This document shows positions 4,610 through 29,156 of a stretch of 29,156 nt of DNA, piece by piece (positions within the stretch are counted from its first letter, which is position 1; each line of letters opens with the position of its first letter). The position numbers and the translations under genes were made by a program. A model generated the notes under the pieces. That model saw only the letters and a list, made by a program, of their open reading frames with translations, was not told the origin of the DNA and searched no databases. This DNA is from a virus. The DNA lies in IMG/VR virus record IMGVR_UViG_3300005096_000067, positions 1 to 29,156 of that record; one strand, given 5' to 3'.

Positions 4610-6181
4610 ATGGCAGTCAAGAAGACATCGTTGCGCGGACGAATGGCACGGGGTATCAGCGCCATGGCGCAAAGCCTGAATTCCACCGCCCGCATGGTTG
4701 CTGGAGTTGGCGGCTACGCTGCCGGACGGCGCGATAACCGCAAAATCAGGTCCTGGCGACCAACTGGTGGCAGCGTTGATGCTGATATTTTGCCGGATTT
4801 GCCGGAACTGAGGTCGCGGTCGCGCGATCTGGTGCGCAATGCCCCACTGGTAGCCGGGGCTCTTCGGACAAAGACCAACGGGGTTATTGGCACCGGGCTC
4901 AGGTTCAAGGCAGAACTGGACGCCCAGCGTCTCAAGTTAACCGATGAACAGGCAATTCGGCTGGAAGACCAGATCGAGGAGGAATTTGCTCTTTGGGCCG
5001 GCGGCGCCGATTTTTCCGGCAAGGGGCGGCATTTTTATATGCTGCAACGCCTGATTTATCGCTCGATGCGCGAAAATGGTGATGTTGGCATTGTCCGGCG
5101 GCACAGGAAAGACGTTGGCAACCCCTATAGCACCAAGCTGGTACTGATCGAGAGCGACCGGATCAGTAACCCGAAGCGCCGGGCTGACAGCGCGCGGATC
5201 AGGGGCGGTATCCAACATCGGTCTGGGCAAGTCGAAGGGTACTGGATCAGCGATCGGCATCCGGGAGATTTGATGGCGACTGCCTTGAAGTGGTCGTTTG
5301 TCCCGCGTCTTGGCAAGAGCGGCCTGCCGCTATTCTTGTTGCCGTTTGACGAATTACGGGTCGGGCAGGTGCGAGGGGTGCCCGAGGTGGCGCCCCTGAT
5401 AACCTCGCTCAAGCAAATAAGCGACTATAGCGAAGCGGAAATATCCAGTGCGGTAAACAGCGCCATGCTGTTTGCCTTTGAGACCCTGGGTGAAGCGGAT
5501 CAGTCCGCCGGTGTGGAGCACTTGGTCGATGCTCCGGCGGGTGAAGGGGCGGCAGCCGGTGACAAAGAGGTGCAGCTTGAAGATTTGACCATCATTACGT
5601 TGTCTCCGGGCAGTGACGTTAAAATCAATGCACCAAGTCGTCCCAACCCCCAGTTTGAGCCATTTATTGCGGCGGTGTTGAAATCGCTGGGGGCAGCATT
5701 GCAACTTCCCCATGAAGTTCTCTTGATGCACTTTTCCTCGAGCTATTCGGCCAGCCGGGCGGCGCTGGAGTTGGCATGGAAGGCGTTTCAGGCGGAGCGA
5801 GCGGAACTTGTTCATGTCGCGTTCGACCCGATCCTTGAGTGGTTCTATGTCGAAATGATCAGCCTCGGGCGGCTGGAGGCCCCCGGGTTTTTTGATGATC
5901 CGGCCATCCGGGCGGCTTGGATGGGCCATCAATGGGTGGCGCCAACCCGCATCCAGATTGATCCCGTAAAGGAAGCCCATGCCGACGAAATCGACGTGGC
6001 AGGGGGGTTCAAAACCATCGAACAGGTGCTGGTTGAGCGCACCGGCGGGGACTTCCCGCGCAAGCATCGCCAGCGGGCCGCCGAACATAAAAAACGGATA
6101 GAAGCAGGAATGGAGCAGGATATTAGTGCCATTACCGGCAAGATGCTTCCTGTTTCCACTGCCAAGCAACGCGGAAGCTGA
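4610..6181 (+). CDS. Portal protein, lambda gpB family
   Basis: This 523-residue protein forms the dodecameric portal through which DNA enters and leaves the head. The ATG at 4610 was chosen because it lies 2 nt after the stop of the gpW-like gene. The frame is open upstream, but a start at 4535 would overlap that gene by 73 nt. Length is close to lambda gpB (533). Recognisable features are the early RSRSRDLVRNAPLVAGALRT helix, the GTGLRFKAELD segment, the ENGDVGIVRR block, LVLIESDRISNP near the middle, and a C-terminal LGAALQLPHEVLLMHFSSSYSASRAALELAW stretch characteristic of the family. Confidence 0.93.
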   Translation: MAVKKTSLRGRMARGISAMAQSLNSTARMVAGVGGYAAGRRDNRKIRSWRPTGGSVDADILPDLPELRSRSRDLVRNAPLVAGALRTKTNGVIGTGLRFKAELDAQRLKLTDEQAIRLEDQIEEEFALWAGGADFSGKGRHFYMLQRLIYRSMRENGDVGIVRRHRKDVGNPYSTKLVLIESDRISNPKRRADSARIRGGIQHRSGQVEGYWISDRHPGDLMATALKWSFVPRLGKSGLPLFLLPFDELRVGQVRGVPEVAPLITSLKQISDYSEAEISSAVNSAMLFAFETLGEADQSAGVEHLVDAPAGEGAAAGDKEVQLEDLTIITLSPGSDVKINAPSRPNPQFEPFIAAVLKSLGAALQLPHEVLLMHFSSSYSASRAALELAWKAFQAERAELVHVAFDPILEWFYVEMISLGRLEAPGFFDDPAIRAAWMGHQWVAPTRIQIDPVKEAHADEIDVAGGFKTIEQVLVERTGGDFPRKHRQRAAEHKKRIEAGMEQDISAITGKMLPVSTAKQRGS

Positions 6182-25940: not shown

Positions 25941-26245
25941 TGCAGGATTTCTGGGCCTGGTTGTCTGGGGCGAAATTTGCCTCGGTTTTCACCTCAATGG
26001 CAGGTGCAACAATCGCTGTCCTGCTTGAATTCAAACGCCACACATGGGCCACCGCTGCCCTAGCGCTGGTAAGTGGTGTTTTTGTCGCTTTTGTCGCAAC
26101 AGAGCCTATCGTTGAGTTTTTTAGCCTATCTAGTAACGCTGGAAATGCCATCGCTGGTGTGCTGGGCATTTCGGGGCGCGGCCTGATTGTCTGGCTGCTC
26201 CAGATAAGCAAGGACCCGCTGGCGGCGTGGAAAAACCGGAAATAA
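25940..26245 (+). CDS. Putative class I holin, three membrane helices
   Basis: This 101-residue protein has three hydrophobic segments (FASVFTSMAGATIAVLLEF, TAALALVSGVFVAFVATEPIVEF and NAIAGVLGISGRGLIVWLLQI) with a basic C-terminus (WKNRK). Three helices and about 100 residues fit a class I holin, which permeabilises the inner membrane to release the endolysin. I chose the ATG at 25940 (AGAGGGGCGGG upstream). The other membrane genes of the cassette are alternatives. The family cannot be named. Confidence 0.68.
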   Translation: MQDFWAWLSGAKFASVFTSMAGATIAVLLEFKRHTWATAALALVSGVFVAFVATEPIVEFFSLSSNAGNAIAGVLGISGRGLIVWLLQISKDPLAAWKNRK

Positions 26246-26478
26246 AGCCGTGTGTTCATTTTCTGCGCCACGAACGAGAGCAGGAAAATCAATCCACCAA
26301 GCCAAAATCAATCCACTTCTGGTGTGAAAAATGCCAGCAACAGGCCCAGTGGGAGGCGCACCGGATCCCCGGGCGGGAATATGTACAAATCACCGTAATG
26401 TGCCACGGCGAGCGGATGCTGGTGGACTTGGAGGTGGAGATTGGTGGAATGTTTGGCTCCACAAAAGTAACGGAGTGA
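26227..26478 (+). CDS. Small Cys/His-rich (zinc-ribbon-like) protein
   Basis: This is an 83-residue protein starting at a GTG inside the preceding holin-like gene (19 nt overlap). Cysteines and a histidine occur as PCVHFLRHE, HFWCEKC and MCHGE, which could bind one zinc. The rest is charged and ends VEIGGMFGSTKVTE. The start lacks a clear ribosome-binding site. It lies between lysis genes and the methylase. Function is unknown. It may regulate either, but this is not shown. Confidence 0.6.
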   Translation: MEKPEIKPCVHFLRHEREQENQSTKPKSIHFWCEKCQQQAQWEAHRIPGREYVQITVMCHGERMLVDLEVEIGGMFGSTKVTE

Positions 26479-27451: not shown

Positions 27452-28114
27452 CTAAATTGCCACAGTGCAGTCATCGCCGCTGTAGCGTGACGAGTTCACG
27501 CGCCTGTCAACTCGATAAGCGGAGAGGTCGGTTCCGTGATTTTGCTTCAGCAGGCCTCGTGCTTCTTCAATGCTGGTTTCTGCAGACAGCCAAGCATCCC
27601 AGACGCTGGTTTTCAATATTGCTGGCATGCGGTTGTGGATCGGCTGGATTTCGCCGACCGAGGGCAGGGTCAGCACCGTGCAACTGGTGAGCGCCAATCT
27701 CTCGTTGAACTCCCAAAGGCCGGCAAATGAGAATGGCTTTTTGTCAAGGTGAATGTACCACGGGTCCTTTTTTCCATCATCACCCTTAGTCCATTCGTAA
27801 TAGCCGTTTGCCGGTATCAGACATCGGCGTGAACTAAACGCACTCCTGAACGTGGGCTTTTCATGTGCCGCCTCAGCGCGGGCATTGAAGGTGGGATATT
27901 TGGTACTGAACTCTTTGGCCCATGCCGGCACCAGCCACCATTGCCCGGTTTTTATGATGCGCTCACCGTTCGACGCGGTGCAGAAATGCAAATTCTGGGT
28001 GGGAGAGATATTTTGTCGAGGTCCCAAATTATGCCCCTCACCGGCACTGGCGTGGATATTGTAGAGTTCGTGGATTTCCTGCCATGTCATATTGTTGGAT
28101 ATTCGACCACACAT
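27452..28114 (-). CDS. SOS response-associated peptidase (SRAP, YedK/HMCES family)
   Basis: This 220-residue protein is in the SRAP family, which covalently shields abasic sites in single-stranded DNA. The initiator methionine is removed so that Cys2 (MCGR) forms the crosslink. Asn77 (FNARAE), Glu107 (GYYEW) and His160 (IHNRMP) are the other active residues, all present. The C-terminal VNSSRYSGDDC fits. I chose the ATG at 28114 since Cys must be residue 2. It is convergent with the methylase (10 nt apart) and divergent from a small zinc-ribbon gene across a perfect alphaproteobacterial LexA box. It is either host or at the prophage edge. Confidence 0.95.
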   Translation of the reverse strand: MCGRISNNMTWQEIHELYNIHASAGEGHNLGPRQNISPTQNLHFCTASNGERIIKTGQWWLVPAWAKEFSTKYPTFNARAEAAHEKPTFRSAFSSRRCLIPANGYYEWTKGDDGKKDPWYIHLDKKPFSFAGLWEFNERLALTSCTVLTLPSVGEIQPIHNRMPAILKTSVWDAWLSAETSIEEARGLLKQNHGTDLSAYRVDRRVNSSRYSGDDCTVAI

Positions 28115-28158
28115 CAGGCGAGAGTGCAGCAACCCGCATTGTTGCGCAAGGGTCGCTT

Positions 28159-28173
28159 GTTCTTTTTATGTTC
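28159..28173. promoter_or_regulatory. LexA (SOS) box GTTC-N7-GTTC
   Basis: GTTC at 28159-28162 and GTTC at 28170-28173 are separated by TTTTTAT, a perfect match to the alphaproteobacterial LexA operator GTTC-N7-GTTC. It lies in the 77-nt gap between two divergent genes. For the plus-strand gene it overlaps the -35/spacer region of a promoter with a CATAAT -10 at 28178-28183. The box is 45 nt from the SRAP start. Confidence 0.88.
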
Positions 28174-28191
28174 TCGCCATAATCTGCGGCA

Positions 28192-28599
28192 ATGCCACCG
28201 CTCAAAATTATCACTTCCACTCTTCACTATATGCGTGACAACGATCATTTGTTCCACGCGTGGTGCTCAAACGCAGTGCGCTGCGGCCATCATAGCGGGC
28301 TTGAACTGGAAACGCTGGCCGACCGACTGGGCTGGGATTTTGATACGTTCGGGAAGCGGGTGGAGTTGCGTTATCGGCTGATTTGCTCACGCTGCGGCGC
28401 CAGAAATCCCGAGTTGATAATATCGCCGTATAGCGGCAACACCCTGGGTGCCTCCCACAACCATCATGTCCAATATTCCGATCTGGAACTTGCTACCCGT
28501 GATGAGGCGCTTAAAGAAATGGTGGCAAAGCGCAACGCGATCGAGGGCGAGGCGGAACGGTATAAAGGCAAAAGGCGGCGGCGCAGACGGAGAGGTTAG
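28192..28599 (+). CDS. Small alphaproteobacterial zinc-ribbon protein, SOS-linked
   Basis: This 135-residue protein has Cys25 (HAWC), Cys31 (VRCGHH), Cys65 and Cys68 (LICSRCGAR), a likely zinc site. The layout HAWC...C ... RLICSRCGARN is common in small Hyphomicrobiales proteins of unknown function. A C-terminal KRRRRRRRG run is strongly basic, suggesting nucleic acid binding. Its start is only 9 nt after a -10-like CATAAT, with no ribosome-binding site, so its mRNA may be nearly leaderless. It shares the LexA box with the divergent SRAP gene, so SOS induction is expected. Confidence 0.78.
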   Translation: MPPLKIITSTLHYMRDNDHLFHAWCSNAVRCGHHSGLELETLADRLGWDFDTFGKRVELRYRLICSRCGARNPELIISPYSGNTLGASHNHHVQYSDLELATRDEALKEMVAKRNAIEGEAERYKGKRRRRRRRG

Positions 28600-28707
28600 C
28601 AGAACAGTAGATGAACCTGGTGGCAGATCGCGTGGGACTTTGTGTTCCGTTCAGTGCCACACCATGCCGTTTTTTCCGTTTTGTTCCAAACAGTGCCTTT
28701 CTTGGGG

Positions 28708-28821: not shown

Positions 28822-28824
28822 TTA

Positions 28825-29093
28825 GAGCACTTCCGGGTTAAATTGAATCGATTCTGTTTCTTGATTGGCGAGATGAACCGGAGTTGAAACGGGCGTAGCG
28901 CGATGTTTGCCATCGGGCAAGAGCGTTTTGGCTATGGGCATCCGCCAATCTGAAACCCTTGAGGGACGGGCTATTTTGCGCCAATACCGGCGCGAAGTCT
29001 TTTGCTCGTATACAAATATGACCTGCAATCCCTCACTTGATCTTGTCACAAAATAGCTCCGTCAGAATGGTTCAATTTAACCCGGAAGCGCTC
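28825..29093. mobile_element. MITE-like element, TA-flanked, 31-bp terminal inverted repeats
   Basis: GAGCACTTCCGGGTTAAATT at 28825 onwards is matched, in inverted orientation, by the right end at 29093 running back through GAGCGCTTCCGGGTTAAATT. The inverted repeats run about 31 bp (through ATTCTG) with two mismatches and one indel. TA dinucleotides flank the element at 28823-28824 and 29094-29095, the target duplication of Tc1/mariner/IS630 elements. The 269-bp size and absence of a transposase make it a miniature inverted-repeat transposable element. A 75-codon minus-strand frame inside is not similar to any transposase I recognise. Confidence 0.78.
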
Positions 29094-29111
29094 TAAGTTT
29101 ACCGCTTGATC

Positions 29112-29156
29112 GTTGCCGCCCCCGTTGCCGCCCCCGTTGCCGCCCCCGTTGCCGCC
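29112..29156. repeat. 12-bp tandem repeat at the window edge
   Basis: The unit GTTGCCGCCCCC occurs 3.75 times and is cut by the window end. In the plus frame it reads Val-Ala-Ala-Pro; in the minus frame Gly-Gly-Asn-Gly repeats. It may be the end of a low-complexity gene outside the window. No gene can be assigned here. Confidence 0.8.

What the first reader, a model, noticed from the sequence alone, without database searches (positions are those of the whole stretch)
28115..28191. Single LexA box controls SRAP and a divergent zinc-ribbon gene
A perfect GTTC-N7-GTTC operator lies between SRAP (abasic-site shield) and a small Cys-rich protein with an arginine-rich tail. The box overlaps the zinc-ribbon gene's promoter elements. 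Sharing of a SOS operator suggests that the small protein works with SRAP in DNA-damage handling, which I have not seen described. Its mRNA seems nearly leaderless.
Basis: partly seen in the sequence, partly recalled or inferred. Interest (0 to 1): 0.6.

Follow-up and report, generated by a model that had tools for sequence, protein, structure and literature searches.

The report
SOS-controlled zinc-ribbon family of Alphaproteobacteria
A DNA-damage (LexA) switch lies between a known abasic-site shield gene and a small zinc-binding protein gene; [quoted passage not shown]

Summary
GTTCTTTTTATGTTC lies at 28159-28173, 44 nt from an intact SRAP gene (minus strand) and 18 nt from a 135-aa Cys-rich gene (plus strand) with an Arg-rich tail. 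It matches a box at two LexA-controlled Caulobacter promoters (PMC12700426) at 14 of 15 bases. The interpretation needs turning round. The small protein is a divergent member of an alphaproteobacterial zinc-ribbon family that no Pfam or NCBIfam model covers (62 of 385 sampled genomes). Of 63 members, 27 have an exact GTTC-N7-GTTC within 250 nt upstream, against 0.4 expected in shuffles and 17 of 725 control ORFs. The box recurs in at least three unrelated gene neighbourhoods that lack SRAP. SRAP genes rarely have it (3 of 30 sampled). SRAP lies near a family member only in the window, L049 (same strand), L100 (about 1 kb) and plasmid L002. The box is best read as the inherited LexA operator of the zinc-ribbon gene, which SRAP shares here. 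A dedicated SRAP partnership is possible but weakly supported. Zn-ribbon domains near SRAP/Ku genes were mentioned in 2013 (PMC3765255); I found no report of this LexA-boxed family. Molecular function and induction by damage remain untested.

The parts
28159..28173 (+). LexA box GTTCTTTTTATGTTC (GTTC-N7-GTTC)
   Evidence: 14/15 identical to the box at Caulobacter ccna_01391 and ccna_02355 promoters (PMC12700426); same motif upstream of 27/63 family members
28192..28599 (+). zinc-ribbon gene, 135 aa, C-x5-C-x-H ... C-x2-C, divergent member of the LexA-boxed alphaproteobacterial family
   Evidence: profile of the other members without window, L002, L003: E 9e-11, 34.7 bits, best of 20,000 shuffles 14.2 bits; hhalign probability 95.6, E 1.2e-8
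28480..28596 (+). C-terminal extension specific to this member: predicted helix (residues 97-133) ending in KGKRRRRRRRG
   Evidence: absent from the other 27 aligned members; helix at pLDDT about 61-83 in a single-sequence model that is otherwise poor
27452..28114 (-). SRAP / YedK-HMCES family protein with Cys2 and the NARxE, GYYEW and HNRMP motifs
   Evidence: PF02586 E 8e-59; phrog_1599; aligned with HMCES and YedK structures
28157..28162 (+). possible -35 (TTGTTC), overlapping the box, for the zinc-ribbon gene
   Evidence: read from sequence; spacing of 15 nt to the -10 fails the 16-18 nt rule: tentative
28178..28183 (+). possible -10 (CATAAT) for the zinc-ribbon gene, implying a very short leader
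   Evidence: read from sequence: tentative
28162..28189 (-). possible SRAP promoter: -35-like TTGCCG and -10-like CATAAA, the latter inside the box
   Evidence: read by eye on the minus strand; not found by the scan: tentative

Best explanation
The 28159-28173 element is a LexA operator that represses the zinc-ribbon gene until DNA damage, and by its position also the divergent SRAP gene. The zinc-ribbon protein belongs to a conserved alphaproteobacterial family whose LexA control goes with the gene, not with SRAP. On damage, RecA-promoted LexA cleavage frees the box, and a short (possibly leaderless) mRNA gives a small zinc-ribbon protein. I think it most likely acts as a nucleic-acid- or repair-protein-binding accessory factor in SOS. 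In this prophage-associated copy a helical, Arg-rich tail would add DNA/RNA affinity, and it is made together with the SRAP shield. Shown here: box, genes, family, conservation of the box, presence of LexA in the box-bearing genomes. Inferred: LexA binding, induction, zinc binding, nucleic-acid or partner binding.
For: Box present. Family found by profile in 62/385 alphaproteobacterial genomes. Box within 250 nt upstream in 27/63 members, against shuffle mean 0.4 (max 3 of 200) and 17/725 control ORFs, Fisher p 1.6e-21. Two further members miss the box by one base (L049, L072). Most boxes lie 11-90 nt before the start codon. Boxes recur in unrelated gene neighbourhoods. The spacer is AT-rich like that of a Caulobacter LexA box. 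Box-bearing genomes have LexA (read by eye). The window protein matches a profile built without it.
Against: No expression or binding data. The window protein is a divergent member (at most about 40% identity to any relative found), outside the core clade where most boxes are, so its box may be ancestral or independently gained. 36 of 63 members have no exact box by this count. Function beyond a zinc-ribbon-like pattern is unsupported: no Pfam/NCBIfam model over threshold, no useful fold.
Confidence: 0.72

Rival explanations
1. The zinc-ribbon protein and SRAP form a dedicated two-gene damage-handling module: the small protein loads, recruits to or removes SRAP at abasic sites, and the shared box keeps them in step.
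For: Head-to-head sharing of one box in the window; a same-strand ZnR-SRAP pair about 140 bp apart with a near-box (GTTTCCATTTTGTTC, 12 nt before the ATG) in L049; SRAP about 1 kb from a distant member in L100 and close by on plasmid L002 with an ATP-dependent ligase. Zn-ribbon-like domains in SRAP-Ku neighbourhoods were noted in 2013 (PMC3765255).
Against: Nearly all other members, including nearly all with boxes, have no SRAP within about 4 kb. Sampled SRAP genes rarely have a box (3/30). The 59/62 genome co-occurrence is confounded: both genes tend to be missing from small genomes.
Confidence: 0.2
2. The box serves the zinc-ribbon gene only; SRAP lies beside it by chance or as phage cargo and is not LexA-controlled.
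For: The box is 18 nt from the zinc-ribbon start and 44 nt from SRAP; SRAP genes in related genomes rarely carry boxes; phages carry SRAP in unrelated contexts.
Against: 44 nt is within the range of box-to-start distances seen in this family, and a plausible SRAP -10 lies inside the box; the gap leaves little room for a SRAP promoter clear of it.
Confidence: 0.25
3. The box is a chance match, or the operator of a phage repressor instead of LexA.
For: Three exact matches in 29 kb against 0.95 expected, and the DNA is prophage-like.
Against: Placement in a 77-bp divergent promoter gap, 14/15 identity to a box at LexA-regulated Caulobacter promoters, and conservation upstream of relatives.
Confidence: 0.06

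Closest known systems
Alphaproteobacterial SOS regulon (LexA, GTTC-N7-GTTC), as in Caulobacter (PMC12700426)
   Same: Same operator core, AT-rich spacer and promoter-proximal position.
   Different: The zinc-ribbon family did not turn up in the SOS papers I searched; their gene tables (supplements) could not be read. DNA-damage induction is unshown.
SRAP / YedK-HMCES (PF02586)
   Same: Neighbour gene; catalytic motifs intact.
   Different: The zinc-ribbon protein is unrelated to SRAP and usually not linked to it.
Zn-ribbon-like domains in SRAP-Ku neighbourhoods (Aravind et al. 2013, PMC3765255)
   Same: Predicted small Zn-chelating domains encoded near SRAP; plasmid L002 with an ATP-dependent ligase resembles that setting.
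   Different: Whether they are the same family cannot be told: the sequences are in a supplement not readable here. LexA boxes upstream of them are not mentioned in the passages read.
HypA / generic Zn-ribbon models (PF01155, PF01096, PF13248)
   Same: Weak hits to some members, probably from the paired CxxC pattern (best E 3e-4).
   Different: The window protein has no hit; no generic model is a plausible family assignment.

Membership tests
LexA-regulated (SOS) gene of Alphaproteobacteria | GTTC-N7-GTTC operator near the promoter | tested here: met
   conserved upstream of 27/63 relatives
LexA-regulated (SOS) gene of Alphaproteobacteria | LexA present in genomes with boxed members | tested here: met
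   read by eye; the window's own host is unknown
LexA-regulated (SOS) gene of Alphaproteobacteria | LexA binding and induction by DNA damage | not testable with these tools
   needs EMSA/ChIP and RNA-seq
LexA-boxed zinc-ribbon family | Match to a profile built without the window sequence | tested here: met
   E 9e-11, 34.7 bits, best of 20,000 shuffles 14.2 bits; hhalign 95.6%
LexA-boxed zinc-ribbon family | Cys/His pattern C..C.H ... C..C | tested here: met
   C25, C31, H33, C68 aligned in all 28 rows and C65 in at least 90%; the first knuckle is CX5C here against CX2C in most
LexA-boxed zinc-ribbon family | Zinc binding | not testable with these tools
   needs purified protein
SRAP (YedK/HMCES) | PF02586 over cut-off; Cys2; NARxE, GYYEW, HxRMP | tested here: met
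SRAP (YedK/HMCES) | Covalent cross-link to abasic sites | not testable with these tools
   needs a biochemical assay
SRAP-Ku-associated Zn-ribbon domains (Aravind 2013) | Sequence relation to the described domains | not testable with these tools
SRAP-zinc-ribbon module | Conserved gene linkage | tested here: not met
   SRAP near only L049 and L100 among the 60 fetched genome loci, besides window and L002
Pfam / NCBIfam / PHROG named family | Any model over its cut-off | tested here: not met

The most novel reading that the evidence does not exclude
A widespread alphaproteobacterial family of small zinc-ribbon proteins is a core, undescribed part of the SOS response with its own role (for example a damage-induced nucleic-acid- or replisome/RNA-polymerase-binding factor), and a phage has captured it next to SRAP under one LexA switch.
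Probability: 0.45. Interest if true: 0.65.

Novelty: new member of a known kind. Interest (0 to 1): 0.5.

Why it matters
Many SOS-induced genes have no known function. This adds a family with a conserved LexA operator, recognisable in about one in six sampled alphaproteobacterial genomes. It gives a testable gene for damage handling in a class where SOS is studied mainly in Caulobacter. It also shows that an operator shared with SRAP need not mean a shared pathway.

Tried and rejected
(1) Single-protein scans of viral contigs for the zinc-ribbon and SRAP, and an alignment scan with core members, found no viral relatives. (2) The genome-contig scan gave two loci (L004, L005) that do not encode recognisable relatives at the match and lack SRAP; used only as a handle. 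(3) Tblastn of the window protein against phages found nothing, and against plasmids two weak hits; a core member found none in either. (4) Single-sequence AlphaFold of the window protein was poor (pLDDT 51), so no fold search was run. I did not submit the family alignment because its loci came from a tool outside the stated rule. (6) No attachment-site repeat of 13 nt or more was found between the right end and the rest, so whether SRAP and the zinc-ribbon gene are phage cargo or host flank is undecided.

Full report
OBSERVATION. The sequence has an exact GTTCTTTTTATGTTC at 28159-28173. On the minus strand SRAP starts at 28112-28114 (MCGR...), 44 nt from the box. On the plus strand a 135-aa ORF starts at 28192, 18 nt from the box, with an in-frame TAA at 28180-28182, so the start is well fixed. 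Pattern counts alone are weak (3 in the window against 0.95 expected), but a match in that particular 77-bp gap is unlikely by chance (about 0.002). A recent Caulobacter study reports GTTCttgttatGTTC at two LexA-controlled promoters (ccna_01391, ccna_02355; PMC12700426); the window box differs at one base.

SETTING. The window is an IMG/VR virus record with terminase, head protease, major head protein, tape measure, tail fibre, endolysin and a D12 methyltransferase. SRAP and the zinc-ribbon gene lie between the methyltransferase and a tRNA-Pro. No integrase or repressor was seen at the left end and no attachment repeat of 13 nt or more was found, so cargo or host flank cannot be decided.

THE FAMILY. 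The small protein has no Pfam or PHROG match, and its NCBIfam hits are far below their cut-offs. tblastn found weak relatives on alphaproteobacterial plasmids. A first class search gave five weak hits, two of which (L007, L009; the same genes as L043 and L044) had a GTTC-N7-GTTC 11 and 32 nt upstream of the start. A seven-row profile (A2) then hit 62 of 385 alphaproteobacterial genomes. With a profile that leaves out window, L002 and L003, the window protein scores 34.7 bits, E 9e-11, against 14.2 bits for the best of 20,000 shuffles; hhalign against ten core members gives 95.6%. It is thus a member, but a divergent one: it falls outside the core clade in a poorly resolved tree and has a CX5C first knuckle and a helical Arg-rich extension that the others lack. 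A phylum-wide sample with the core profile gave one strong hit, already known from the class search, and twelve weaker ones.

THE BOX BELONGS TO THE FAMILY. Of 63 distinct members, 27 have an exact box within 250 nt upstream of the domain start. Dinucleotide shuffles of the same regions average 0.4 (maximum 3 of 200); 17 of 725 other ORFs in the same loci have one (Fisher p 1.6e-21). L051 has a box missed by this count because of its long ORF, and L049 and L072 miss by one base. Most boxes lie 11-90 nt before the start codon, and the spacer is AT-rich. Neighbours differ: one recurrent set in ten loci (by sequence appearance yfgM and bamB, with guaA in some), a second in L065-067 (murA, hisD), a third in L068/070/072 (argG, hsp20) (gene names by eye, not by profile). 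The operator therefore goes with this gene, not with a neighbourhood. Genomes with boxed members have LexA (read by eye).

SRAP. SRAP is found in 215 of 385 genomes. Of 30 SRAP loci sampled, 3 have a box within 250 nt, a little above control. SRAP lies near a family member in the window, L049 (same strand, about 140 bp downstream), L100 (about 1 kb) and plasmid L002. My rough expectation for SRAP within 4 kb across about 62 loci is 0.15, so linkage is probably real but rare. Genome co-occurrence is high (59/62 against 156/323), but both genes tend to be absent from small genomes, so I give it no weight. The window SRAP itself has the expected catalytic motifs.

PRIOR WORK. Aravind et al. 2013 noted two Zn-chelating, Zn-ribbon-like domains in SRAP-Ku neighbourhoods (PMC3765255). 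I could not compare sequences, so part of this family may already have been seen. I found no report of LexA boxes upstream of such a family, within an open-access library and without supplements.

MECHANISM. Best reading: LexA represses the zinc-ribbon gene, and by position SRAP, until damage; the protein then acts as a small nucleic-acid- or repair-protein-binding factor. Control is well supported by conservation; molecular function is inference from a zinc-ribbon pattern and a basic tail. The promoter elements named in the parts list are by eye and did not pass the scan.

VERDICT. Observation confirmed; SOS control of the small gene strongly supported; specific SRAP partnership weak. Worth following as a conserved, uncharacterised SOS gene family.

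Noticed in passing
window 28602-28616 (-) and 5810-5824 (+): Two more exact GTTC-N7-GTTC matches; the first lies 2 nt after the zinc-ribbon stop codon. Probably chance (0.95 expected per window).
   Followed up: no
window 26227-26478 (+): Small Cys-rich ORF (MEKPEIKPC...WCEKCQ...) with a weak match (E 0.003) to the zinc-ribbon family profile, before the D12 methyltransferase.
   Followed up: no
window 28822-29096: Inverted repeat with 26-nt arms (96% complementary) 223 nt apart, directly after tRNA-Pro: looks like a MITE-type element.
   Followed up: partly
window 29111-29156: 12-bp tandem repeat (CGTTGCCGCCCC) runs off the contig end, probably where the assembly stopped.
   Followed up: no
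L049:3327-4300: Zinc-ribbon and SRAP on the same strand; the SRAP reading frame seems to begin ICSRYS with an ATC where an ATG is expected.
   Followed up: partly
L041, L042, L045: A subfamily without boxes; genome G031 has three paralogues.
   Followed up: no
L059: A family member lies about 400 bp from a GcrA-like gene (by sequence appearance) and about 6 kb from a SRAP gene in the same genome (G107).
   Followed up: no
L085, L074, L089, L092: Distant members, outside the core clade or weakly placed, also carry exact boxes close to their starts.
   Followed up: partly
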